Assembly (NCBI GenBank): GCA_020051015.1
Contig: JAGVJQ010000034.1
Location: 1 to 52,522, forward strand
Length of the DNA: 52,522 nt
Origin: Gammaproteobacteria bacterium
GTDB taxonomy: Bacteria; Pseudomonadota; Gammaproteobacteria; UBA1113
Reading direction: 5' to 3'
The position numbers were made by a program, and so were the translations under genes. Position 1 is the first letter of the stretch; every line of letters starts with the position of its first letter. The notes below the pieces were generated by a model that was not told where the DNA came from, did no database searches, and saw nothing but the letters and a program-made list of their open reading frames with translations. Shown here in pieces: positions 21,443 through 52,471 of the stretch.

Positions 21443-22378
21443 ATGCTTAACATAGTACCTAAACAACACGATCTTAAGGCTACTCTATTAGTAGCTATTT
21501 CAGCCACACTTTATGGTTTTTTGGCTTTCTTGGGAACTCAACTCATACGAGCACATTTCTCCATTGAAAATATGTTATTTTGGCGTTTTTTTATTGCTGC
21601 AATTTGGATGCTTGGCTATTACACTTTCCAAAAACGAAAAACTTTTTTAAAAGAATTGCCCAATATTCGTGCTTTAATTCCAATTTTTCTTCTTGGTGCC
21701 ATTTGTTATAGTGGTAGTTGCGGTTTTTATTTTCTAGCTACACAATATACTGGTACCGGTTTGGCTATGGTTATTTTCTTTTCTTATCCGATGATGGTCG
21801 CTATTTTGGTATGGTTTACAGATCGACGTGCCATTAGTATATCGTTAATTACAGCATTAATTGCTATATCTTTTGGGTTGTTTTTATTAAAAGGCCCTAG
21901 CTCACATAGTATTAATTTATTAGGCATTTCTTTTGCTTTGTTGGCTGCATTATCTTATGCATTTTATGTATTTGGTACAAAATGGACTGTTAAGACTATT
22001 GATTCTGGATTATCGACCATTGTAGTTTGCCTGGGATGTGCAACCGCTTTTTTATTGATTACTCTCTTAACACATACCTTTGTCATCACTCACTCAATAC
22101 GAGATTGGTTATATATTATCGCCCTCAGCATTATTGCCACGGCGATTCCAATTCAATTAATGCTTGAAGGTTTGAAATCAATTAATCCGGTACATGCATC
22201 TGTATTGTCTGTATTAGAACCTTTAGTGACGGTCGGCGTTGGAATTATCTTGCTTAGTGAAACTATTTCGTTTATTCAAGCAACAGGTTGTATCATTATT
22301 TTAATTAGTGCCTTAGCTATTCAATTTCAACGAATTTCACCACATCAGCGTGAACTAATACAATCAATATCTGAATAA
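21443..22378 (+). CDS. EamA/DMT-family transporter
   Basis: This 311-residue integral membrane protein has ten predicted transmembrane segments in two homologous EamA halves (about residues 15-145 and 160-295). The halves contain the typical GF/WRFxxA start (ENMLFWRFFIAAIW) and the second-half AxxPxxxxxxEP-like end (HASVLSVLEPLVTV). Substrate cannot be read from the sequence; family members export amino acids, nucleosides or other metabolites. It is divergent from psuK. Its 3' end overlaps the convergent gene ending at 22345 by 34 bases. Confidence 0.9.
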   Translation: MLNIVPKQHDLKATLLVAISATLYGFLAFLGTQLIRAHFSIENMLFWRFFIAAIWMLGYYTFQKRKTFLKELPNIRALIPIFLLGAICYSGSCGFYFLATQYTGTGLAMVIFFSYPMMVAILVWFTDRRAISISLITALIAISFGLFLLKGPSSHSINLLGISFALLAALSYAFYVFGTKWTVKTIDSGLSTIVVCLGCATAFLLITLLTHTFVITHSIRDWLYIIALSIIATAIPIQLMLEGLKSINPVHASVLSVLEPLVTVGVGIILLSETISFIQATGCIIILISALAIQFQRISPHQRELIQSISE

Positions 22379-22830
22379 GCATAGATTAATCCTTTTTCAA
22401 ATAAATGAGTATATTTTTTCGATGAAACTGAACCAACCATTAAAACCCCATCGATGAAAGAACCACATTGCGCACAATAGGTGCGAGCACCTTGTCCCTG
22501 AATATTTTTTACTTGCTTATTGACTGGAGGTGAAAAAAACTGTGCTACGTGCGTTAAAAATCCTTCACTATTAATAAAATGAAATCCATCATGATATGGA
22601 TGTTGATAATCTGTAATTTCATTTAAATATGCGACTAAATCTCTTGAGCCAACTTTCAATTGCGGAATTTTTTTATCATCATCGACAAGATCACAATGAT
22701 ATTGTGATAATGTGCTCATGTTTTCATATAAAACCAAACCCACGCCAGAAAATCCCTTTTTTTCTGTCATGGATAATTCTTTTGTTAGTTCCAAAAATGC
22801 ATTAGTAATCGCTTCATGTTTCATTTTCAT
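22345..22830 (-). CDS. Hypothetical protein, possibly DisA_N-like nucleotide-binding
   Basis: This 161-residue protein is the last gene of the radical SAM operon. I start it at the ATG at 22830, three bases after the upstream stop, because GGAG lies seven bases before it; the longer start is a GTG. A HDGFHFI...THVAQFFSPP segment (about 80-103) followed by GARTYCAQCGSF (about 114-125) and an MVGSVSSKKYTHLFEKG strand is reminiscent of the DGA and RHR motifs of diadenylate cyclase (DisA_N) domains. The His and Ala positions are changed, so catalysis is doubtful. This assignment is tentative. It contains no signal peptide. Confidence 0.6.
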   Translation of the reverse strand: MKMKHEAITNAFLELTKELSMTEKKGFSGVGLVLYENMSTLSQYHCDLVDDDKKIPQLKVGSRDLVAYLNEITDYQHPYHDGFHFINSEGFLTHVAQFFSPPVNKQVKNIQGQGARTYCAQCGSFIDGVLMVGSVSSKKYTHLFEKGLIYAYSDIDCISSR

Positions 22831-22833
22831 CAC

Positions 22834-23355
22834 TTACTCCAAATTAATTTCATCAAACATGCTTAATTGATTATTTACAATTTCAACTAACTTAATTGTT
22901 TTTAGTTCCCCATGAATATTAATTTTTTTCATATTTAAATGAGTTATCAATTGTTTACATTCTGCTTGATCTTGAAAACTACCAATAGCTATATGTGGTA
23001 TAAATGATAACGTTTCATCGCAAATCATTTTTTGTTTTATTAACTGGTGAATCTTTATAATACAATCAGATCCGTTCTTTGGAATTAAATATGCATACCA
23101 TGATTTATGATCATTTGATGGGGGCATTAATATGGATTTTTTAATATTAAATTTAATTCTTTTTATTGTCGTTAGTTGTGCTTTTACTTGCTGTGACAAT
23201 AGATTTTTATCAATTCTTGTCGTGGTAGAAAACAATGTGAAATGCGGATCTATAAATGCATAGCCACGTGGGTCATATTGCTGACGATAATTTTGTAAAA
23301 AATTCCAATCTTCCATATTTAACTCTGGAATAGCAATAGCCATGATTTTTGACAT
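22834..23355 (-). CDS. 2H phosphoesterase (2'-5' RNA ligase/LigT-like)
   Basis: The protein has the paired H-x-[ST/A] motifs of the 2H superfamily: HFT at residues 38-40 and HIA at 121-123. The second lacks the usual hydroxyl residue. Family members open or close 2',3'-cyclic or 2'-5' phosphodiester bonds in RNA or nucleotides. I start it at 23355 because GAGGT lies just upstream of this ATG and the longer form adds nine unrelated residues overlapping the previous gene. It has 173 aa. It sits in the radical SAM operon, seven bases after the DUF5662 gene. Confidence 0.75.
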   Translation of the reverse strand: MSKIMAIAIPELNMEDWNFLQNYRQQYDPRGYAFIDPHFTLFSTTTRIDKNLLSQQVKAQLTTIKRIKFNIKKSILMPPSNDHKSWYAYLIPKNGSDCIIKIHQLIKQKMICDETLSFIPHIAIGSFQDQAECKQLITHLNMKKINIHGELKTIKLVEIVNNQLSMFDEINLE

Positions 23356-23362
23356 TGTTACC

Positions 23363-23896
23363 TCATGATCTATTTTTACCATTTCGATAATCCATTTCTT
23401 GGATGGTTTTGAATATTAATTGTTTTTTATCGACAGAAAAATTCCATTTTTTATCAATATTCTCCTCAGCCCATAAATAACAACTACCATTACTGTGGTT
23501 ATTTTCTTGGCTAATCGCCGTCCAATCCGCAATCATTTCAATAATATTGGCATCAGTCATTGCATCATGTGATGCATGTGCTTCTGGGTGGTGTGAGTTA
23601 TGGCAAAGGTGATGTTGCCAGCCTTGAAAAACCATTTGTTCTATGTTTTTTGGATAAGTAAATGGGATGTTATTGTTTTTACAATAGTACATCCAGGTCA
23701 TCCAAATATATGATATACGCTCAGATTCATCATATTTACTTTTATCGTGCATACAAGCTAACTCTTGGAGAAAATTAATATCAATACCTAAATAGCCTTC
23801 CATCTGTAAAAGATTTTTCTTTACTAAAGCAATATGATGCTTTGTTCTTTTTTCAAATAACGCTATCATCTCTTTGCTAGGTACGATAGCAGACAT
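23363..23896 (-). CDS. DUF5662-like protein with HDKSK motif
   Basis: This 177-residue protein has the features I associate with DUF5662: a KHHIALVKKNL helix, HDKSK at 50-54, QGWQHHLCHNSHHPEAH and the EMIADW segment. The multiple His/Asp residues look like an HD-type metal site, so a phosphohydrolase activity is possible but undemonstrated. The ATG shares a base with the FkbM gene stop (TGATG) and is preceded by AAGGATG, so translation is coupled. Its role in the operon is unknown. Confidence 0.7.
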   Translation of the reverse strand: MSAIVPSKEMIALFEKRTKHHIALVKKNLLQMEGYLGIDINFLQELACMHDKSKYDESERISYIWMTWMYYCKNNNIPFTYPKNIEQMVFQGWQHHLCHNSHHPEAHASHDAMTDANIIEMIADWTAISQENNHSNGSCYLWAEENIDKKWNFSVDKKQLIFKTIQEMDYRNGKNRS

Positions 23897-25185
23897 CAGT
23901 TTACATCCTTGATTGCAAAGACATTATAAATCCCTGATTTTTTTAAATTCTTATCACTTTCGATATGCAATAGAAAATTTTTGCTAGTTAGTATTTCCGT
24001 TATAATATTCAAGTCTTCTTTATTATGTACTTCCATGACTATTTGATTTATCTTTTCCCAATCGTTTTGACTTATGCCATGTAGTACAGCGAGCTCTGCT
24101 CCCTCTACATCAATTTTAAGCAAATCAATTTTCATTATTTGCTCGTTTTTTATAACACTTGACAAGGTAATCATTTGACATTGATAAGCTATTTTTTTTG
24201 ATAATCTATTGTTTACCAATCTGGAAATTTTCTCTGGTTTATCATTATTTTTATTAGTTGCCATCATCCCACTAACAATAATATCTGCATCACGCTGTTG
24301 GTCAGCATAACATCCAGAAATAACTGAATAGCCTGGATAATAATAAAAAGTTTGTGGTGCATTGGTATCAGACAAGCCAAAATTATAGGTCTTAATATCT
24401 TTGCTAAGTTTTTTCATATTTAGGTCAAGCACAGCATAGGTCGCCGGGGCAGGTTCAAAAGCATAAAGTTTACTAGTTTGAAATTTTTCCTTTATATACA
24501 AACTAAATAAACCAATATTAGCGCCAACATCAAATATAGTTGCACATTCTTTAATTTTTATACCATGCTGCAAATAAGTTTCGTCAATAAATATTTCATT
24601 GAAGAGAAAGTCGGTTTCATAATCATTAATATGAAATATTTCTTCCCCATTTGGTAAGTTATATCTATCAAAGTTGATTGTTTCAAGTTCAATTATTCCT
24701 TTTCTACTACCAATCCAACTTGAACTTTCACCTCTTGTTATGCTAAAGCACGCTATATCAGGTTGACAATGTTTTGTTATTCTTAAGTTTTGTTGCAATA
24801 CATTATTATCAAATTCTATTTGATCCCAAATCATTAATGCACCTTCAGCACTAGAAAGCTCTCTTACTTTTTTATAATAATAGGGTGCTGCTTGATGATG
24901 TCTTATTACAATAGCAGCAATACGTTCTTTTGATAAGGCAATTGCTTCGCACAGACGTTGTGATTTGTCAGCTGCTATTGTCAGTATGTCTTTTTCTTCC
25001 TGACTTGATTTATCGGTATTAATTTTTTTTGGATCAACTAAAACAATTACCTTATTTCTTTTGGTATGCGATTTTGCTAGTGTTATTGCTTTTGCAATTG
25101 CAAAATCCGGCGTCAGAATATGGTGCGTTGACTCCATGGATGGAATAATAGCTTGTATTAGTTTTAATGTGTCTATTTTTTCCAT
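23896..25185 (-). CDS. FkbM-type methyltransferase fused to aminotransferase-like N-terminal domain
   Basis: The C-terminal half (about residues 195-425 of 429) is a SAM-dependent FkbM methyltransferase: FDVGANIG at 218-225, FEPAP at 243-247 and LLKIDVEGAE. Residues 25-165 look like a cut-down class III (glutamate-1-semialdehyde-type) aminotransferase. AIAKAITLAKSHTKRNKVI, IAAIVIRHHQAAP, VRELSSAEGALMIWDQI and QPDIACFSITRG match its succession of motifs. The PLP-binding Lys position is occupied by another residue and the normal N-terminal ~100 residues are missing. The N-terminal domain is therefore probably non-catalytic. The gene overlaps both neighbours by one base. Confidence 0.8.
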   Translation of the reverse strand: MEKIDTLKLIQAIIPSMESTHHILTPDFAIAKAITLAKSHTKRNKVIVLVDPKKINTDKSSQEEKDILTIAADKSQRLCEAIALSKERIAAIVIRHHQAAPYYYKKVRELSSAEGALMIWDQIEFDNNVLQQNLRITKHCQPDIACFSITRGESSSWIGSRKGIIELETINFDRYNLPNGEEIFHINDYETDFLFNEIFIDETYLQHGIKIKECATIFDVGANIGLFSLYIKEKFQTSKLYAFEPAPATYAVLDLNMKKLSKDIKTYNFGLSDTNAPQTFYYYPGYSVISGCYADQQRDADIIVSGMMATNKNNDKPEKISRLVNNRLSKKIAYQCQMITLSSVIKNEQIMKIDLLKIDVEGAELAVLHGISQNDWEKINQIVMEVHNKEDLNIITEILTSKNFLLHIESDKNLKKSGIYNVFAIKDVN

Positions 25186-26366
25186 TAAAAAAATCCTCGT
25201 GCGTACCCATCACTAGTAGTGCCACTTTCATTTACTAGTAATTCAGGCTTAAAGTATTTTTTAGTTAATTTCATTCCATCTAATAAAAAACGCAGATTGA
25301 AGTCTTTGTTTTGTATTGTTCGCATTGCGTCATTATAGGCTGTAAAAATACTTAACCATGGCACTATTTGCGTATGTTTTAACGATTGATTTATTTCAGC
25401 TAATTGTTGGAAGAAATATTCAGTAACATCTAATGAATCCAAACCCATTAAATAAGTAACACGAACCAAATGTTTACCTAATTCTGGTCGCGCATCTAAA
25501 TAGTTAGCATAAGTCTTTATCAGCTCGACAAATTTTTTGCTATCCCGGCCTTTATGGCCAACTTTGCCATTTAACGCTATATTTCTTAAATTTTGATCGT
25601 AACATTCTAATGTAACAAAAATGTCATAACCTAATTTACCTACTATGTCATCAAATTGTTCTTCAGTTACAATATTATGTTCAAGCACGCGATAGGTTGA
25701 TGGTTTGCAATATGCATCGATATTACGACGAACATCCGTTAAATGCTGCTTTAATTGATTAAAACTGGGAAAACATCCGGTTACTACAGCAACACTATTA
25801 AGTTGTTTAATTGCTTCTTGATGTTGTTCAAAAATTCGTGTGACAACTGTTTCGGCTGACAAGGTACTATCCATCCCATTATTTACACGACCGGTTTTAG
25901 CACCCGCACATAATACACATTTCTCTAAACAAGCTGGACTTAAATTTAAGGTCATGGAATCATAGGGTTGGTGTTCTTTATTTGGATCATAATGAAAGTA
26001 CCAAAATGGCGTAGTATGTGGAATTGATTGAGGATAAATAGCTGTTTGAATGTGATCTATCATCAGTAAACCATTTTCAAACCTAATATTTGGTCTTTTT
26101 TCATGTTTATTTTGTGACATGGGAATTAAAAAAAAATGATCCTTTCCACTAACAGAATCAGTATAACGTGCATAGGTATGTGTTTGCCAAATACCAGTTG
26201 GGGTCATGCCATGGGCAGTTATAAATAATCTTAAGAAATGTTCTGGTGATAATTCATTTGCTGCAATTAAAACTATTTCATCCTCAGCATGATATTGATT
26301 TGCTAACCAAATGCATTCTGCAGTCCCAAGATTAACTTTTTCATACGCGAGGTTTGTTGCTTGCAT
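25185..26366 (-). CDS. Radical SAM enzyme, first gene of the operon
   Basis: From the ATG at 26366 the protein has 393 aa. The iron-sulfur cluster motif CLEKCVLC (CX3CX2C, Cys 146, 150 and 153) shows a radical SAM enzyme. About 140 residues precede it, which I do not recognise. The downstream part has the expected alternating strand/helix pattern (SVAVVTGCFPSF, YDIFVTLECYD) but no obvious SPASM cysteine cluster. I use 26366 because GGAG lies seven bases upstream; the ATG two codons earlier is too close to it. The substrate is unknown. The coupled downstream genes suggest it acts with the FkbM fusion protein. Confidence 0.85.
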   Translation of the reverse strand: MQATNLAYEKVNLGTAECIWLANQYHAEDEIVLIAANELSPEHFLRLFITAHGMTPTGIWQTHTYARYTDSVSGKDHFFLIPMSQNKHEKRPNIRFENGLLMIDHIQTAIYPQSIPHTTPFWYFHYDPNKEHQPYDSMTLNLSPACLEKCVLCAGAKTGRVNNGMDSTLSAETVVTRIFEQHQEAIKQLNSVAVVTGCFPSFNQLKQHLTDVRRNIDAYCKPSTYRVLEHNIVTEEQFDDIVGKLGYDIFVTLECYDQNLRNIALNGKVGHKGRDSKKFVELIKTYANYLDARPELGKHLVRVTYLMGLDSLDVTEYFFQQLAEINQSLKHTQIVPWLSIFTAYNDAMRTIQNKDFNLRFLLDGMKLTKKYFKPELLVNESGTTSDGYARGFF

Positions 26367-26422
26367 GCTCATACTCCAGTTTGATATAACTTGAGCATTA
26401 GCATAATAGAGGTTTACATTTC

Positions 26423-26448
26423 ACATTACCGTATTAATACGGTAATGT
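26423..26448. promoter_or_regulatory. 26-bp perfect palindrome, candidate operator for the PAS-LuxR regulator
   Basis: The 26 bases are a perfect palindrome with half-site ACATTACCGTATT. It lies one base after the luxR-type stop codon and about 56 bases before the radical SAM start. It is not followed by a T-run on the minus strand, so an intrinsic terminator is less likely than a protein-binding site. Binding by the adjacent regulator is inferred from position and symmetry. Confidence 0.6.
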
Positions 26449-26449
26449 A

Positions 26450-27145
26450 TTAATCTTTTAAAATATCAATTAAATTCAAATCAATGAGACTCTTTGGCAC
26501 ATGTTTTTGATAACCTTGTTCAATGGCTGTAACTAGTAATTCAGCTTTGTTCATGCAACCTAGCTTTGATTTTATATTTTCGGTATACGATTCGACGGTG
26601 CGTTTGGATAACTTTAGTATTTCACCAATTTGTTTAGCTGTTTTACCACGTAACTGTAAAAATAGACACTCTAGTTCACGTTGTGATAATTCAGCAGGAT
26701 TATCATTAGCATTTAAATTGTAATAGTCTGGAATAGTTGCTAAAGGTTGGAATTTCTTATCAATTTGTTTTAATGACGTTAAAAGATTCTCTTGTTGCCA
26801 TGATAAGCAGTGATAAAGCACACCAATAATTTTCTCTTCTTCATTGCGTAATGGTTTTTTCTGCAAAAAATATGTTTTATTATCTGTTGAACTCTCTAAC
26901 GTATGCATAATTTCTATGGTATGCCCTTGCAAAGCGAGCAAATCATGTTGCCGATAAATTGCATTTTGGGTTGGTTTGCTCGAAGTTAATTCATCATCGC
27001 TAATACCAATTAATTCTTCGCGGCAGTTTAATTTCATTTGTATGATTAAACTTTTATTGGCACCAATATATTTTAAATTAGTATCTTTCCAAGCAACAGC
27101 GGCAGGAATTTGATCAAGAATCAATTGATTAGTAATGATTAACAT
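26450..27145 (-). CDS. PAS-LuxR transcriptional regulator
   Basis: This 231-residue protein has an N-terminal PAS-like sensor domain (about 5-120; VAWKDTNLKYIGANKSL, GISDDEL) and a C-terminal GerE/LuxR helix-turn-helix (about 155-215; LSQRELECLFLQLRGKTAKQIGEILKLSKRTVESY...). No receiver domain is present, so it is not a classical response regulator. The PAS domain should sense a small ligand or redox state. It lies directly upstream of the radical SAM operon with a palindrome in between, which makes that operon its obvious candidate target. Confidence 0.88.
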   Translation of the reverse strand: MLIITNQLILDQIPAAVAWKDTNLKYIGANKSLIIQMKLNCREELIGISDDELTSSKPTQNAIYRQHDLLALQGHTIEIMHTLESSTDNKTYFLQKKPLRNEEEKIIGVLYHCLSWQQENLLTSLKQIDKKFQPLATIPDYYNLNANDNPAELSQRELECLFLQLRGKTAKQIGEILKLSKRTVESYTENIKSKLGCMNKAELLVTAIEQGYQKHVPKSLIDLNLIDILKD

Positions 27146-27175: not shown

Positions 27176-27442
27176 CTATAACAACTGTTTTCTTGCTTTA
27201 CGACTTGGAAACAATGTTTTAAAAAAAATATCACCATTAGCTTCCAGAACAAAAGGAACAGCATACACTTCATCAGATAAACGTACATAAAGAATCTTCT
27301 GATTTGGGTATTTCTTTTGATTATAATGATCTTTAATTTCTAAAATATTTCCATCAGAAATAGCTTGAATTATTTCATCAAAACCAATACCTATTTCATT
27401 TAACAACAATGCATTCTTTTCGTAATTATATTTAAACTGCAT
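27176..27442 (-). CDS. Small toxin-like protein of a toxin-antitoxin pair
   Basis: This 88-residue protein starts FKYNYEKNALLLNEIGIGFDEI and ends FFKTLFPSRKARKQLL. It resembles the BrnT-like/COG2929 small toxins in having an N-terminal strand-plus-helix and a C-terminal basic SRKA segment, although the central KYPNQKILYV block marks a distinct subgroup. It follows the antitoxin gene by nine bases on the same strand. The likely activity is ribonuclease-like growth inhibition, inferred from the family. Its exact family name is uncertain. Confidence 0.75.
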   Translation of the reverse strand: MQFKYNYEKNALLLNEIGIGFDEIIQAISDGNILEIKDHYNQKKYPNQKILYVRLSDEVYAVPFVLEANGDIFFKTLFPSRKARKQLL

Positions 27443-27451
27443 TGGTTTACC

Positions 27452-27715
27452 TTAAAAACTGGTTGCATCTTTATGAATTAGCATATTGAGATAAGTTTGG
27501 TAAGGAATGCCGCACTTCGAGGCTTTAATTTTTATTATTTCGATATCGTGTGCTGAAACACGAATAGTAATTGGTTTTTTATCTTGTAAATGTTTTTTTG
27601 CTGCGTCCTGTAACTGATTGATTAATTTATTTTTATTACTTGTAACAGGTAATCGCCCGAAATTATCTTCAAGATCTTGCTCATATAAATCTAGATTGTC
27701 TTTCTTTGCCATCAT
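27452..27715 (-). CDS. CopG-type antitoxin
   Basis: This is a roughly 87-residue ribbon-helix-helix protein. The C-terminal KPITIRVSAHDIEIIKIKASKCGIPYQTYLNMLIHK matches the CopG antitoxin family (PF12441 type). The N-terminal region is charged and may wrap the toxin. It is the first gene of the pair and is expected to repress the promoter at 27745-27772. The start has tandem ATGs without a strong ribosome binding site. Confidence 0.8.
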   Translation of the reverse strand: MMAKKDNLDLYEQDLEDNFGRLPVTSNKNKLINQLQDAAKKHLQDKKPITIRVSAHDIEIIKIKASKCGIPYQTYLNMLIHKDATSF

Positions 27716-28519: not shown

Positions 28520-29806
28520 TTAATAACGGTAGTATTCTGGTTTGTAAGGACCGTCAATAGGAACCCCTAACGCATCGGCTTGTGCTTGTGTTAAGCGTGT
28601 CAATTTAACACCTAATTTATCAAGATGTAAGCGTGCCACATCTTCGTCTAATTTTTTCGGTAAAACATAAACTTGTTTTTGATACTTATCGCTATGTTGC
28701 CATAATTCCATTTGCGCCAATACTTGATTGGTAAATGAATTTGACATAACAAAGCTTGGGTGACCGGTGGCACAACCTAAATTCACCAAACGGCCTTCTG
28801 CTAATACAATGATACGTTTGCCATCTGGGAAAATCACATGATCAACTTGTGGTTTGATATTTTCCCACTTAAATTGACGTAATTCAGCAATTTCAATTTC
28901 AGAATCAAAGTGACCAATGTTGCACACAATAGCTTGGTGCTTCATTTTTTTCATGTGCTCAAGCGTGATAACACGATCATTACCTGTTGCCGTCACGAAA
29001 ATGTCACCCATTGGTGCAGCATCTTCCATCGTAACCACTTGATATCCTTCCATTGCTGCTTGTAATGCGCAAATGGGATCGATTTCAGTAATTAATACGC
29101 GTGCACCTAAGCTACGCAATGATTGTGCACAGCCTTTACCCACATCGCCATAACCTAATACCACGGCAATTTTACCTGCGATCATGATATCAGTTGCACG
29201 TTTAATGCCATCCATTAAAGATTCACGGCAGCCATATAAATTATCAAATTTAGATTTAGTAACGGAATCATTTACGTTAAATGATGGCGCTTTTAAGATG
29301 CCTTTTTTCGCCATTTCATATAAACGATGGACACCGGTTGTGGTTTCTTCGGTAATGCCACGTACTTCAGCCATCACTTCCGGATATTTCTCATGTAACA
29401 CTAAGGTTAAATCACCGCCGTCATCTAATACCATATTGGGGCGCCAGCCGTTAGGGCCAAATATAGTTTGATCCACACACCACCAATATTCTTCTTCGGT
29501 TTCGCCTTTCCAAGCAAAGACTGGAATACCCGCTTTAGCAATAGCAGCTGCTGCATGATCTTGGGTGGAGAAAATATTGCATGATGACCAACGTACTTCC
29601 GCACCTAAAGCAACTAAGGTTTCAATTAATACAGCAGTTTGAATCGTCATATGTAAACACCCAGCGATACGGGCACCTTTTAAAGGTTTTTGCGCCGCAT
29701 ATTTTTCGCGGATAGCCATTAAGCCTGGCATTTCAATTTCTGCCATGGTCATTTCTTTGCGGCCCCAATCGGCTAGCGACATATCAGCTATTTTATAATC
29801 GTTCAT
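28520..29806 (-). CDS. ahcY: Adenosylhomocysteinase
   Basis: It hydrolyses S-adenosylhomocysteine to adenosine and homocysteine, removing the inhibitor produced by methyltransferases. Conserved segments include [21 protein letters not shown], the [15 protein letters not shown] motif, [13 protein letters not shown], the NAD-binding [13 protein letters not shown] and the C-terminal KPEYYRY. It has 428 aa and is complete. The start follows AGAGGAA. I looked for an SAH riboswitch in the short leader and could not support one. The divergent toxin gene begins 165 bases away. Confidence 0.97.
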
Positions 29807-29971: not shown

Positions 29972-30268
29972 ATGTTGAATTTTGCTGAAATTGAAGGTTT
30001 TGATTGGGATAAGGCCAACATCGAAAAAAACAAGAAAAAACATCAGGTTGAGTACTGGGAATGTGAACAAGTATTTTTCAACCAACCACTGTTATTGCAT
30101 GAGGATATTGGTCACTCACATCATGAAAATCGTTTTTATGTCCTTGGTCAATCTGATAATAAACGACGATTATTTATTGCTTTTACAGTCCGCAAACATT
30201 TAATCCGAGTAATTTCAGCTCGTGATATGAGTCGACGGGAGAGAGAAAGTTATGAAACACAGAGATGA
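29972..30268 (+). CDS. brnT: BrnT-family toxin
   Basis: This 98-residue protein has the BrnT layout: FDWDKANIEKNKKKHQV near the start, a middle HENRFYVLGQSDNKRRLFIAFTV and the end IRVISARDMSRRERESYE. BrnT toxins are ribonuclease-like and block translation. It precedes its antitoxin, overlapping by 17 bases, the usual toxin-first order for BrnTA. The start codon is not well supported by a ribosome binding site, since AAGGAT lies about 15 bases upstream. It is a different family branch from the toxin at 27176. Confidence 0.88.
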   Translation: MLNFAEIEGFDWDKANIEKNKKKHQVEYWECEQVFFNQPLLLHEDIGHSHHENRFYVLGQSDNKRRLFIAFTVRKHLIRVISARDMSRRERESYETQR

Positions 30269-30557
30269 ACAAAAATTACTTGATGAAGACTCAAGTGAAT
30301 TTATAGATTGGAAAAAAGCTAAAAAAGTTGCTTTTCCAAATTTAAAACCATCGACACGCGCCATTTCTTTGCGTCTTAGTGAATCAATGCTCAATGAAAT
30401 TAAGGTTATTGCACATAGTCAAGATATACCCTATCAATCCTTAATCAAGATGTGGTTCAATGAGCAAATTAGAGCATATCATCATGGTTATACCAATCTC
30501 AGCGTTAGCGAACCCTCTAAAACTTATAGCGCAAAGAAAAAAACTAAAAAGTCATAA
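30252..30557 (+). CDS. CopG/BrnA-type antitoxin
   Basis: This 101-residue antitoxin has a charged N-terminus with DWKKAKKVAFPNLKPS, then a ribbon-helix-helix core (AISLRLSESMLNEIKVIAHSQDIPYQSLIKMWFNEQI). It ends in a Lys-rich tail. The core resembles the antitoxin at 27452, although their toxins differ. Its ATG lies inside the toxin gene after GGGAGAGA, which gives coupling. It likely neutralises BrnT and represses the promoter at 29907. Confidence 0.82.
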   Translation: MKHRDEQKLLDEDSSEFIDWKKAKKVAFPNLKPSTRAISLRLSESMLNEIKVIAHSQDIPYQSLIKMWFNEQIRAYHHGYTNLSVSEPSKTYSAKKKTKKS

Positions 30558-31025: not shown

Positions 31026-32342
31026 ATGCAATCAGTCGATTTAATTATCGCGCCACGTTGGTTATTGCCCATTGAACCAGCAAATACCGTCTTGGAACAC
31101 CATGCCATTGCTATTAAAAATGGAAAAATTGTTGCCATTCAACCTGCTGAAATCATGCGTGTTAATTATACGACGAAAGAATACATTGAGTTATTAAACC
31201 ATGTTTTAATGCCTGGGTTTGTCAACACGCATACTCATGCTGCTATGAATTTATTACGTGGTTTGTGTGATGATATTCCCTTGATGGATTGGTTAAATAA
31301 TTATATTTGGCCTGCAGAAAAAAAATGGTTAAGTGAAGCTTTTATTCATGATGGAACACAATTAGCCATTGCCGAGATGATTAAATCAGGCACCACTTGC
31401 TTTAACGATATGTATTTCTTTGTTCCTGCTGCTGTAAAAGCAGCTGAAGAAGCTGGGATTCGTGCCGCACTGGGAATTACTGTATTTGATGTGCCAACCC
31501 CATGTGGTGATAATGCTCAAGATTATTTAAATCGTGGCTTACCGCTATTTGAACAATATAAGAATCATCCACTCATTCAATTAACGATGGCGCCACATGC
31601 GATTTACACCTCTTCGGACGCAACGCTAGTTGAAGTGCGTAAAGCTGCAGAACGTTATAATGCATATATCAATATGCATGTGCAGGAAACGCATGATGAG
31701 ATAGAACAATCAATAGCAAAAACTGGCAAACGTCCATTGGAGCGGTTACACGCACTAGGGTTGTTGTCAGATAAATTTATTGCCATTCATATGACACAAA
31801 TTACACCTGAAGAAATTGAGTTATCTGCAAAAACAAAAATTTCTGTCGTACATTGCCCCGAATCTAATATGAAATTAGCAAGTGGCATTTGTCCCGCACA
31901 ACAATTTTTAAATGCGGGAGTTAATGTTGCTTTAGGTACTGATGGTGCCGCCAGCAATAATGATCTGGATATGATAAGTGAAATGCGTAGCGCCGCATTT
32001 TTATCTAAATTAAGCGAAAAAAATCCAACCACTGTCTCTGCTATTACAGCATTAACCATGGCCACATTAAATGGGGCTAAAGCATTAGGCAAAGATAAGA
32101 TTTTTGGTAGTTTAATTGAAGGCAAAGCTGCCGATATGATTGCGATAGATTTACATCATGTCAACACCGCACCTGCTTATCACCCTACTTCTGCCTTAGT
32201 TTATGCAGCTAATCGCCATCAAGTTAGCGATGTGTGGGTTGCTGGAAAGCGATTATTAGATAATCATCGATTAACAACCATTGATGAAATCGCTTTATTG
32301 GATAATATCGAACGGTGGGAAAGACGAATTAGTTCTAATTAA
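31026..32342 (+). CDS. mtaD: 5'-methylthioadenosine/S-adenosylhomocysteine deaminase
   Basis: This amidohydrolase-superfamily metalloenzyme deaminates methylthioadenosine and/or SAH to the inosine forms. The metal-binding THTHAAMNLLRG, the VQETHDEIEQS region, IHMTQIT, HCPESNMKLASG and LGTDGAASNNDLDM are all present in order. It has 438 aa, usual for the family. The start has AGGAG upstream. With mtnA and the mtnB-like gene elsewhere in the window, it suggests methylthioadenosine is processed through methylthioinosine, as known in Pseudomonas. The required phosphorylase is not in the window. Confidence 0.9.
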   Translation: MQSVDLIIAPRWLLPIEPANTVLEHHAIAIKNGKIVAIQPAEIMRVNYTTKEYIELLNHVLMPGFVNTHTHAAMNLLRGLCDDIPLMDWLNNYIWPAEKKWLSEAFIHDGTQLAIAEMIKSGTTCFNDMYFFVPAAVKAAEEAGIRAALGITVFDVPTPCGDNAQDYLNRGLPLFEQYKNHPLIQLTMAPHAIYTSSDATLVEVRKAAERYNAYINMHVQETHDEIEQSIAKTGKRPLERLHALGLLSDKFIAIHMTQITPEEIELSAKTKISVVHCPESNMKLASGICPAQQFLNAGVNVALGTDGAASNNDLDMISEMRSAAFLSKLSEKNPTTVSAITALTMATLNGAKALGKDKIFGSLIEGKAADMIAIDLHHVNTAPAYHPTSALVYAANRHQVSDVWVAGKRLLDNHRLTTIDEIALLDNIERWERRISSN

Positions 32343-33002: not shown

Positions 33003-34172
33003 TTATGCCCCCAGCTTACCTGCATCTGCTTTCAATGCGGCGGCCTTATCGATTTTTTCCCAGGTAAACTCACCTTCTTCACGACCAAAATGGCCATAGG
33101 CCGCTGTTGGTTGGTAGATTGGTCGACGTAAATTTAACATCGTGATAATGCCATAGGGTCTTAAATCAAAATGTTTCCGTACTAATTTTACAATTTCTGC
33201 ATCAGGAATCGCGCCCGTACCAAATGTGTCGATACTGATCGATGTTGGCTCCGCAATACCAATGGCGTAGGAAACTTGAATTTCACAACGTTTAGCAAGA
33301 CCCGCTGCAACAATATTTTTTGCTACATAGCGACCCGCATAAGCCGCACTTCGATCAACTTTGGAAGGATCTTTGCCAGAGAAACAACCACCACCATGAC
33401 GTGCCATGCCGCCATAAGTATCAACAATAATTTTACGACCCGTTAAGCCGGAATCGCCCAATGGGCCACCAATAACAAAACGCCCCGTGGGATTCACTAA
33501 AAACTTAGTATTAGCTGTAAGCCATTCCGCTGGTAATTCTGGTTTAATAATTTCCTCAATCACCGCCGCACGCAATGTCTCTTGGTTAATTTCTGGTGCA
33601 TGTTGCGTTGACAAGACTACAGTATCGATACCAACGGGCTTTCCATCATGATAAATAAAGGTGATTTGGCTTTTTGCATCAGGTCTTAACCATGCTAATT
33701 TACCTGATTTACGTACTTGCGCTTGACGTTTCACCAAGCGATGCGCGTAGGTAATTGGTGCTGGCATCAAAACATCGGTTTCATCACTTGCGTAACCAAA
33801 CATTAATCCTTGGTCACCGGCGCCTTGTTCTTCTTGATGACTGCGATCAACCCCCATGGCAATATCAACGGATTGTTTACCAATAGCAGTTAATACCGCA
33901 CAGGACTCCCAATCAAAGCCCATTGCTGAGCTGCTATAACCAATATTGCGAATGGTTTCACGAACTATTCCTTCAATATCAACCCATGCAGTTGTGGTAA
34001 TTTCCCCTGCCACCATCACCATGCCTGTTTTCACTAAGGTTTCACAGGCAACACGGGCATGGGTATCTTGTGCCAAGATGGCATCTAATACGGCATCTGA
34101 AATTTGGTCAGCTATTTTATCTGGGTGGCCTTCAGATACTGATTCTGAGGTAAATAGATAGTCGTGTTTCAT
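33003..34172 (-). CDS. metK: S-adenosylmethionine synthetase
   Basis: It makes SAM from methionine and ATP and so supplies the methyltransferases and the radical SAM enzyme in this window. The N-terminal [21 protein letters not shown], the [12 protein letters not shown] motif and the [14 protein letters not shown]-type segment ([19 protein letters not shown]) are diagnostic. I start it at 34172, where GAGGA precedes the ATG and the family sequence begins ([11 protein letters not shown]). It has 389 aa; the longer ORF adds 23 unrelated residues. Confidence 0.97.
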
Positions 34173-34373
34173 TATGGTCCTCGATCTTCTTAAATAATCG
34201 TGGCTACGGCATATGATGCAGAACGCATTACTCCGAAGCATTATTGTTTAAATCTTACAGAGATTATGTTTTATACTCTATACAATAAAGGCAAATTGGG
34301 AATTAGCATACCACATTGGTAAATTATGTACAGCACGTTTTGACTGCTTTGCATTGTTGCCGATTATTGCATA

Positions 34374-50410: not shown

Positions 50411-52471
50411 ATGACAAATATTGACAATTTATTGGTTGAATTAGGTACTGAAGAATTACCACCCAAACCATTAAAAAAATTATCTGACAACTTTGCTGCG
50501 CTGGTACGCCAAGGATTAACGCAAGCTGGATTAAGCTTTGTGGATATTATCCCCTATGCCGCGCCACGTCGTTTAGCACTTAAAATAACGGGCTTAAATA
50601 ACAAACAACCTGATCGCTATGTTGAAAAACGTGGTCCAGCGTTAACAGCCGCATTTGATACACAAGGTAATCTCACTAAAGCTTGTGAGGGGTTTTTACG
50701 TTCTGCAGGAGCTACCGCCGATCAAATCATTAAGCGTGATAACTATGTGTGGATTAACAGCCACGAATTAGGAAAATCAGTAGCCGATTTAATACCTGGC
50801 ATTTTAACTCAAGCCATTGCTCAATTACCGATTCCTAAACGTATGCGTTGGGGCAATTATACTGCTGAATTTGTGCGTCCAGTGCATTGGATTGTGTTGT
50901 TATATGGTAATCAAATTATTCCTGCCACCTTACTTGATCATCCAGCTGGCCGAAATACATTTGGTCATCGCTTTCATCATCCACAAGCCATTGCGCTTAA
51001 TCATGCCGATGATTATGAAGCTGCATTAGAAGCAGCTTACGTTATTCCCTGCTTTGAGAAACGTCGCGAACAAATTCGATCGCAAATTATTGCGTTAGCT
51101 CGTGAGAAAGGCGGGCAAGCGTTAATTAACGATGATTTGCTTGATGAAGTCACCGCATTGGTTGAATGGCCAGTTGCATTATGCGGCCAATTTAACGAAC
51201 GATTCTTACAAGTCCCGGCTGAAGCATTAATTTCAGCGATGGAAGGTCATCAAAAAAGTTTTGCCATTGTTGATCAGCATCACCACTTAAAACCGTATTT
51301 TATTACCATTAGCAATATTGAAAGCAATGATACACAACGCGTCATTCAAGGTAATCAACGGGTTATGCATGCACGTTTATCAGATGCAGAATTCTTTTAT
51401 CAAACCGATTTGAAATCACCTTTATCAAGTTATGTTGAGCCATTAAAAAATGTGGTGTTTCAAACTCAATTAGGTACCGTATACGATAAAACTCTGCGAA
51501 TTAGTACATTAGCCGTTTTAATTGCTGAACAAATTGGTATTGATAAAATTGCTACACAACGTACGGCTGTCCTTTGTAAAGCGGATTTGATGACCAGTAT
51601 GGTGGGTGAGTTTCCAGAATTACAAGGTATTGCTGGATATTATTATGCTAAACAAGCTAATGAACCCGCTGAAACAGCATTGGCAATTAAAGAGCATTAT
51701 TTACCACGTTTTGCTGGAGATGAATTACCAACAACAATGACCGGTTGTGCTGTGGCGTTGGCTGATCGGATAGATACATTGGTTGGCATTTTTGGTATTA
51801 ACCAAATTCCAACCGGTGAAAAAGATCCATTTGGTTTACGCCGCGCAGCATTAGGTATTTTGCGAATTATTATTGAGCATAACTTAACATTAGATTTGTT
51901 GAGTTTAATTCAATATGCTTTTTCACAATATAAACATTTACCTAATCAAAATACCGTAAATGACGTATTTGATTTTATTATGGAACGTATGCGCGGTTGG
52001 TATAGTGAACGTGGTTTGCCTGCTGACATATTTCAAGCTGTCATGGCTAATAAACCTACTAAACCGCTTGATTTTCATCACCGTGTTAATGCGGTAAGTT
52101 ATTTTTTAACCTTGCCTGAAGCTGCCGCATTAGCTGCTGCCAATAAACGGGTAAGTCGTATTTTACAAAAAGAAGCTCTAAATAATACTACTCATGCCAT
52201 TAATCCAACATTATTGACCGATGATGCTGAAAAAATTTTAGCGGAAAAAATTATTGCCTTAGCTACAGTAGTTAATCCTCTGTATCAGCAAGGGAACTAT
52301 AATGAAGTATTGACTACACTGGCTCAGTTGCGTGAACCGATTGATCAATTTTTTGATCACGTAATGGTAATGGTTGACGATGCGGCAATGAGACAAAATC
52401 GAATTGCCTTATTGCAACAATTGAGGGCCTTATTTTTATTAGTGGCTGATATTTCCTTATTACAAGGCTAA
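50411..52471 (+). CDS. glyS: Glycyl-tRNA synthetase beta subunit
   Basis: This is the tRNA-binding subunit partner of GlyQ. The N-terminal LLVELGTEELPPKPL, the conserved EGHQKSFAI region, GIAGYYYAKQANEP and the GEKDPFGLRRAALGILRI block are characteristic. It has 686 aa, complete to the TAA at 52469-52471. AAAGGTC precedes the ATG. The remaining 51 bases of the window show nothing further. Confidence 0.97.
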   Translation: MTNIDNLLVELGTEELPPKPLKKLSDNFAALVRQGLTQAGLSFVDIIPYAAPRRLALKITGLNNKQPDRYVEKRGPALTAAFDTQGNLTKACEGFLRSAGATADQIIKRDNYVWINSHELGKSVADLIPGILTQAIAQLPIPKRMRWGNYTAEFVRPVHWIVLLYGNQIIPATLLDHPAGRNTFGHRFHHPQAIALNHADDYEAALEAAYVIPCFEKRREQIRSQIIALAREKGGQALINDDLLDEVTALVEWPVALCGQFNERFLQVPAEALISAMEGHQKSFAIVDQHHHLKPYFITISNIESNDTQRVIQGNQRVMHARLSDAEFFYQTDLKSPLSSYVEPLKNVVFQTQLGTVYDKTLRISTLAVLIAEQIGIDKIATQRTAVLCKADLMTSMVGEFPELQGIAGYYYAKQANEPAETALAIKEHYLPRFAGDELPTTMTGCAVALADRIDTLVGIFGINQIPTGEKDPFGLRRAALGILRIIIEHNLTLDLLSLIQYAFSQYKHLPNQNTVNDVFDFIMERMRGWYSERGLPADIFQAVMANKPTKPLDFHHRVNAVSYFLTLPEAAALAAANKRVSRILQKEALNNTTHAINPTLLTDDAEKILAEKIIALATVVNPLYQQGNYNEVLTTLAQLREPIDQFFDHVMVMVDDAAMRQNRIALLQQLRALFLLVADISLLQG

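What the first reader, a model, noticed from the sequence alone, without database searches (positions are those of the whole stretch)
22345..27145. Uncharacterised operon: radical SAM, aminotransferase-FkbM fusion, DUF5662, 2H phosphoesterase, DisA_N-like protein, with its own PAS-LuxR regulator
Five genes are chained with one-base overlaps or gaps of a few bases, so they are translated as one unit, and a dedicated regulator stands directly upstream. The combination of a radical enzyme, a methyltransferase, two likely phosphohydrolases and a possible nucleotide-binding protein matches no pathway I know. It could make and control a modified nucleotide, lipid or peptide signal. The parts are seen in the sequence; the joint function is inference.
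Basis: partly seen in the sequence, partly recalled or inferred. Interest (0 to 1): 0.8.

Follow-up and report, generated by a model that had tools for sequence, protein, structure and literature searches.

The report
PanS-type cyclase in an unfamiliar operon
A rare five-gene bacterial operon ends in a relative of an enzyme (PanS) whose other relatives mostly sit beside parts of anti-virus alarm systems, but here no such alarm part was found and modification enzymes stand next to it instead.

Summary
Six minus-strand genes lie at 22345-27145; the last five (variant radical SAM, FkbM methyltransferase, DUF5662, 2H phosphoesterase, DisA_N-like) abut or overlap, and a perfect 26-nt palindrome, nearly unique in the genome, separates the PAS-LuxR gene from them. 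The 'aminotransferase' half of the FkbM protein is a fragment lacking the catalytic lysine. The 'DisA_N-like' protein is the informative part: a homologue of PanS, deposited in the PDB (37jy) as 'Panoptoo PanS synthase' (E=9e-12); no paper on it was found in the library. In 7 of 9 other distinct PanS loci opened, the next gene carries a Cap15-type cyclic-dinucleotide receptor domain (two below Pfam's cut-off), and 5 of those 7 have CBASS genes alongside. The window shows neither. One further Cap15-free case, in Azospirillum, also lies in a packed metabolic operon. So this is a PanS-family protein without a recognisable Panoptoo system. I favour an acquired operon that makes, tailors and turns over a nucleotide-type small molecule (0.35). 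No genome sampled carries the same gene order (radical SAM: 0 of 298 others; PanS: 1 of 368 and 1 of 397 others), so conservation cannot test joint function. No structure model was obtained.

The parts
26450..27145 (-). PAS-LuxR (PAS_4 + GerE) transcription regulator, 231 aa
   Evidence: Pfam PAS_4 1.6e-8, GerE 2.3e-15
26423..26448 (.). perfect 26-nt palindrome ACATTACCGTATT/AATACGGTAATGT, probable operator of the operon (function inferred)
   Evidence: longest perfect palindrome in the window, next 16 nt, 20 shuffles at most 18 nt; in the own genome its 20-nt core recurs within 3 mismatches only at 52078-52097; the terminator scan also scores it as terminator-like on the + strand
25185..26372 (-). 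variant radical SAM protein, 395 aa (start may be ATG at 26366)
   Evidence: C148xxxC152xxC155 read from the sequence; NCBIfam variant_rSAM 0.016, below cut-off; relatives on a Mycobacterium and a Streptomyces plasmid, 24.5% and 24.1%; no Pfam hit
23896..25185 (-). FkbM-family methyltransferase (residues ~210-405) with a partial class-III aminotransferase-like N-terminus (~65-175) lacking the catalytic lysine
   Evidence: PF05050 1.1e-18, TIGR01444 8.1e-30; NeoN transaminase 0.0059 over residues 82-175, F147 opposite the lysine; 11 of the 15 best plasmid matches listed lie under NRPS/PKS-type annotation, the top one under none
23363..23896 (-). DUF5662 protein, 177 aa; H50-D51 and clustered histidines look like an HD-type metal site (inference)
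   Evidence: PF18907 4.8e-29
22834..23382 (-). 2H phosphoesterase of the YjcG type, 182 aa; motifs H47-F-T49 and H130-I-A132
   Evidence: PF13563 3.7e-10; PRK13679 2.6e-12, below its cut-off; structure 2d4g, BSU11850, 0.0018; the name YjcG is recalled
22345..22833 (-). PanS-family (DAC-superfamily-like) protein, 162 aa, or 161 from ATG at 22830
   Evidence: PDB 37jy 'Panoptoo PanS synthase' 9e-12; HDGFH 81-85 and G115-x-R117-xxx-A121-xxx-S125 invariant in 7 aligned sequences; family profile reaches DAC/CdaA structures at 0.0026-0.014

Best explanation
The genes are an accessory operon, probably acquired horizontally, under a PAS-LuxR regulator that probably binds the 26-nt palindrome in front of the radical SAM gene. 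Shown: the packing, the families, the palindrome, and that the last gene is a PanS-family protein without the Cap15-type gene that stands beside most of its relatives. Inferred: PanS joins nucleotides into a cyclic or linear (di)nucleotide; the radical SAM and FkbM enzymes tailor that product or the compound that carries it (FkbM enzymes put methyl groups on hydroxyls, recalled); the 2H and DUF5662 proteins hydrolyse phosphoesters in its processing or turnover. The product would be a nucleotide-type specialised metabolite or private signal, not the classical Cap15 membrane-lysis output.
For: Chained starts and stops. PanS homology. No Cap15 domain hit in the own genome and no membrane segment predicted in the six proteins (simple hydropathy). 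A second PanS homologue without Cap15 among its scanned neighbours, in Azospirillum, lies in a chained metabolic operon: glycosyltransferase, esterase, class-IV aminotransferase, PanS, UDP-glucose dehydrogenase, Ldh_2. The radical SAM relatives on Mycobacterium and Streptomyces plasmids lie in metabolic clusters with phosphoketolase-like, enolase-type and HAD proteins. FkbM is like domains of NRPS/PKS proteins in 11 of 15 listed plasmid matches. PanS, radical SAM and DUF5662 are rare in the samples and the flanking genes lie elsewhere in the genus-mate G001.
Against: No other genome examined shows the five genes together, so the link rests on packing in one assembly. The closest PanS relative (G079, 59-65% identical over the part held) lies in a genome in which the other four proteins were not found (joined query, no positive control, assembly 88% complete, contig begins inside the gene). 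PanS relatives mostly sit with Cap15, which favours the guard rival. The second 2H motif and the PanS motif at the place of RHR are altered. No promoter-like match in the gap before the operon. The negative Cap15 search had no positive control and the own assembly is 88.68% complete. Nothing shows a product.
Confidence: 0.35

Rival explanations
1. A Panoptoo-like guard with a different effector: PanS makes a decoy cyclic dinucleotide that holds a toxic partner (2H or DUF5662, or a protein encoded elsewhere) in check; a phage enzyme or sponge that removes it releases the partner.
For: PanS homologues are beside a Cap15-type gene in 7 of 9 other distinct loci opened, 5 of these 7 with CBASS genes; rarity and scattered distribution; toxin-antitoxin pairs next door; the Panoptes precedent of an inhibitory decoy nucleotide (PMC12657218, PMC12657230, passages).
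Against: No Cap15 hit, no membrane segment among the six proteins; no PADLOC match for the five chained proteins (a 2023 library that predates the Panoptes papers of 2025), and a radical SAM plus FkbM pair has no place in the known scheme.
Confidence: 0.2
2. Specialised-metabolite tailoring operon in which PanS is only a nucleotide-binding regulator or a borrowed fold, with no cyclase activity.
For: PanS deviates from the DAC signature (DGF for DGA, R-T-Y for R-H-R; DAC signature recalled); metabolic neighbours here and in Azospirillum.
Against: R. etli PanS, which its depositors call a synthase, deviates at the same places (DGF, R-Y-L); the residues invariant in the alignment are all kept.
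Confidence: 0.25
3. A collection of unrelated enzyme genes that happen to be packed in an acquired island, with no common product.
For: No recurrence of the gene order in any sample; toxin-antitoxin genes at the border.
Against: Two one-base overlaps, two further junctions within 20 bases and a nearly unique palindrome after the regulator are unusual for a random pile-up.
Confidence: 0.2

Closest known systems
Panoptoo PanS (PDB 37jy; same sequence, residues 2-147, as the Rhizobium etli Mim1 plasmid protein in L005)
   Same: Homologous over residues 14-145 (E=9e-12), same invariant HDGFH and GxRxxxAxxxS
   Different: 26% identical; no Cap15-type partner and no CBASS seen beside it; sits fifth in an operon with radical SAM, FkbM, DUF5662 and 2H genes
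Panoptes (OptS mCpol + OptE 2TM-beta; PMC12657218, PMC12657230, passages)
   Same: Idea of a nucleotide synthase paired with a Cap15-like protein near CBASS, which the PanS loci L003, L005, L007, L010 and L033 share
   Different: mCpol is a Cas10-type enzyme, not of the DAC type; the window has no receptor protein that I could recognise
Azospirillum sp. B510 pAB510a PanS-like gene (L030 14737-15282)
   Same: PanS family, no Cap15 among the six neighbours scanned, chained with metabolic genes; DAC hit 3.7e-4, below cut-off
   Different: Neighbours are other enzyme families; 23-25% identical
CdaA/DisA diadenylate cyclases (PF02457)
   Same: PanS-family profile matches DAC/CdaA structures at E=0.0026-0.014
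   Different: Window protein alone gives no PF02457 hit; RHR signature (recalled) not kept

Membership tests
PanS protein family | Sequence homology to the solved PanS | tested here: met
   37jy E=9e-12
PanS protein family | Residues invariant in the other six aligned members (HDGFH; GxRxxxAxxxS) | tested here: met
   7 sequences
Panoptoo system | Cap15-type (PF18153) partner gene next to PanS (inferred from 7 of 9 other distinct loci, not from a publication) | tested here: not met
   no hit in neighbours; none in the own genome (where no control genome rang either; assembly 88.68% complete)
Panoptoo system | CBASS genes nearby (5 of 7 Cap15-linked loci) | tested here: not met
   none among 23 window proteins scanned with Pfam; other window ORFs and the rest of the genome not searched for CBASS
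Panoptoo system | Cyclic-nucleotide synthesis and phage defence (both assumed from the PDB name and from Panoptes) | not testable with these tools
   needs biochemistry
DAC / diadenylate cyclase | PF02457 match | tested here: not met
   the family profile reaches DAC structures and the Azospirillum member scores below cut-off
DAC / diadenylate cyclase | DGA and RHR motifs (recalled) | tested here: not met
   DGF and R-T-Y in the window protein
Radical SAM | CxxxCxxC cluster motif | tested here: met
   C148, C152, C155 read from the sequence; the two relatives have CxxCxxC instead
Radical SAM | Pfam or NCBIfam profile match over cut-off | tested here: not met
   no Pfam hit; NF045502 E=0.016, below cut-off
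FkbM methyltransferase | PF05050 over cut-off | tested here: met
   1.1e-18
Class-III aminotransferase | Catalytic lysine | tested here: not met
   no lysine from residue 139 to 161; F147 opposite it in a weak alignment
2H phosphoesterase | PF13563 over cut-off | tested here: met
   3.7e-10
2H phosphoesterase | Two HxT/S motifs (recalled) | tested here: not met
   H47-F-T49 kept, second is H130-I-A132 (sequence)
DUF5662 | PF18907 over cut-off | tested here: met
   4.8e-29

The most novel reading that the evidence does not exclude
A PanS-type nucleotide cyclase has been rewired into a pathway in which its dinucleotide product is chemically tailored (radical SAM chemistry plus FkbM O-methylation) and cleared by a dedicated 2H/DUF5662 pair: a modified cyclic-dinucleotide signal or metabolite, which phage sponges and nucleases might not recognise.
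Probability: 0.08. Interest if true: 0.85.

Novelty: new variant of a known kind. Interest (0 to 1): 0.5.

Why it matters
A search of the paper library for 'Panoptoo' found no paper on PanS, so the family seems very new. If members work outside the Cap15 pairing, in metabolic operons, then either the nucleotide has uses beyond guarding CBASS or the alarm was assembled from a metabolic enzyme. Either would bear on where decoy-nucleotide systems come from, and the two loci without a Cap15-type neighbour (window, Azospirillum) make the question testable.

Tried and rejected
Genome-collection scans with PanS and radical SAM as single proteins found no relative. Viral scans: radical SAM alone and as an alignment found none, DUF5662 none, the window-type PanS none, the PanS family one. 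Phage records: PanS none; radical SAM + DUF5662 + 2H joined gave only two Lysinibacillus phages, matched over the DUF5662 part. Plasmids: DUF5662 none, 2H one weak. Solved structures: radical SAM none, alone or as an alignment; DUF5662 only chance-level matches.

Rejected: EamA transporter as an operon member, because it is convergent and has a 59% homologue in G001, on a contig where no operon gene was matched. Rejected: Panoptoo filing for the whole operon, because no Cap15-type gene was found. Rejected: active aminotransferase, because the lysine is gone. A tree of the 9 PanS proteins resolved only window + G079 (99/96); the placing of the Azospirillum protein is open, with very long branches. 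The terminator scan scored the palindrome as a plus-strand terminator-like site; in the operon's own direction no T-run follows, so I prefer an operator, unproven.

Counts: other distinct PanS loci opened = 9: L003, L004, L005, L007, L010, L014, L033 with a Cap15-type next gene; L030 without; L013/L015 (G079) with an ankyrin protein downstream and nothing held upstream. Not counted: L038, 98% identical to L007, and L039, 99.3% identical to L003 over 10.4 kb with the PanS match in three pieces and no gene annotated there. The seven Acinetobacter hits H2-H8, same score and identity as H1, were not opened. In L007 and L033 the Cap15 score is under the Pfam cut-off. In L014 the contig ends about 0.5 kb beyond the Cap15-type gene, and not every ORF of it was scanned. 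G588 was found after the alignments were made and is not in them or in the tree.

Full report
What is there. On the minus strand, 27145-22345, six open reading frames follow one another. After the regulator come five genes with two one-base overlaps (25185, 23896), one overlap of 20 nt or gap of 7 nt depending on the start chosen, and one direct abutment. That is the packing of one translated unit. The regulator is 77 nt upstream of the first ORF and only 30 nt downstream of a BrnT-like gene, so it may belong to the same transcript as that pair; a promoter-like match of 11 in 12 lies before the pair and none in the 77-nt gap (matches in the region were fewer than in shuffles). GC of the six genes is 28-34%, against 37.5% for the window and 41-42% for the neighbours RsmE and AHCY, but 34-36% for the neighbours on the other side, so composition alone is weak evidence of transfer.

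Operator. The gap between regulator and operon holds a perfect palindrome of 26 nt (26423-26448). The next longest in the window has 16 nt, and 20 shuffles reached at most 18. In the own genome its 20-nt core occurs here and, within 3 mismatches, only once more, at 52078-52097 of the same contig. So it is not a dispersed repeat. Its centre lies 27 bases before a TATTAT, near where LuxR-type activators bind (recalled); the role as operator is inference.

The proteins. PAS-LuxR, FkbM, DUF5662 and 2H are confirmed by profiles. The radical SAM protein has C148-C152-C155 but no profile hit over a cut-off; the only relatives found are two actinobacterial plasmid proteins (24-25%) next to phosphoketolase-like, enolase-superfamily and HAD proteins. 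For the FkbM protein 57 plasmid records match, none over 80% of the query; of the 15 listed, 11 lie under NRPS/PKS-type annotation, and the best (Nostoc, 41%) under none. Its N-terminal part resembles the middle of a class-III aminotransferase (NeoN, E=0.0059; GSAM 2e-4) but is short and lacks the catalytic lysine. The 2H protein keeps one of its two motifs intact.

The last gene. phmmer against solved structures gives 37jy, 'Panoptoo PanS synthase', at 9e-12. 37jy matches the protein in R. etli Mim1 plasmid locus L005 residue for residue from 2 to 147. The paper library gave no text on Panoptoo; the one paper listed is about PANoptosis and was not opened. tblastn found 14 plasmid records with relatives. 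In 7 of the 9 other distinct loci opened, the next gene has a Cap15 cyclic-dinucleotide receptor domain, in 5 over and in 2 under Pfam's cut-off; in 6 of these 7 the protein has a membrane segment near its start (the Mesorhizobium protein, fused to a nucleoside phosphorylase domain, has none). In Acinetobacter, R. etli, Agrobacterium, Mesorhizobium and G588 CBASS genes are in the same stretch; in Shewanella and in the viral contig none was seen. This resembles Panoptes, in which a constitutive cyclic dinucleotide restrains a Cap15-like toxin and phage sponges or nucleases release it (PMC12657218 and PMC12657230; listing and passages). That PanS works the same way is an inference from the anatomy.

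What is different here. No Cap15-type neighbour, no membrane segment in any of the six proteins, no PF18153 in the own genome (with the warning that no control genome rang, and an assembly 88.68% complete). No CBASS protein among the 23 window proteins scanned; the rest of the genome was not searched for CBASS. The Azospirillum homologue is the only other clear case without a Cap15-type neighbour; it too is chained to metabolic genes, and the next gene beyond them that was scanned is a transposase part. Whether the two are one branch cannot be told (tree). HDGFH and GxRxxxAxxxS are kept in window and Azospirillum; G079, of which only the second half is held, keeps G-x-R and the last S and has serine for the alanine.

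Recurrence. PanS: 0 of 50 other relatives, 1 of 368 other class genomes (G079), 1 of 397 other phylum genomes (G588). Radical SAM: 0 of 298 others. DUF5662 over cut-off: 0 of 368 others (one fragment below cut-off). G079 has the nearest PanS (65% over 62 columns; 59% in another alignment) but none of the other four proteins was found (no positive control for the joined query); it is the only genome held of its order. In G001, the genus-mate, AHCY-RsmE and EamA lie on different contigs with other neighbours. So the operon looks like a rare acquisition, and conservation cannot test its unity.

Judgement. I put a nucleotide-type product operon at 0.35, a guard with another effector at 0.2, a borrowed, non-catalytic PanS fold at 0.25 and chance packing at 0.2.

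Noticed in passing
window 27176-27715 and 29972-30557: Two BrnT-like/CopG-type toxin-antitoxin pairs lie on either side of the RNA methyltransferase (RsmE-like) and S-adenosylhomocysteinase genes; the second pair is over Pfam cut-offs (8.1e-23, 8.7e-25), the first just or well below them.
   Followed up: partly
window 28520-29806, 31026-32342, 33003-34241: S-adenosylhomocysteinase, an amidohydrolase (possibly one that deaminates adenosine derivatives, inferred) and SAM synthetase lie within about 7 kb of an operon with two SAM-using enzymes.
   Followed up: no
L014 643-9002: An IMG/VR contig carries PanS + Cap15 downstream of a phage-type integrase and a DUF927 protein, possibly a phage satellite with the pair as cargo.
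   Followed up: no
L004 4287-6112: In Shewanella baltica two Cap15-type genes flank one PanS gene.
   Followed up: no
L010 5449-6891: In Mesorhizobium the Cap15 domain is fused to a nucleoside phosphorylase-type domain and has no membrane segment, a possible different output.
   Followed up: no
L033 4704-13423: G588 has a resolvase/recombinase gene, then PanS + Cap15-type gene, with two DncV-type CBASS cyclase genes downstream.
   Followed up: partly
L015 468-5193: In G079 the gene after the closest PanS relative codes for an ankyrin-repeat protein of at least 1575 residues that runs off the contig.
   Followed up: no
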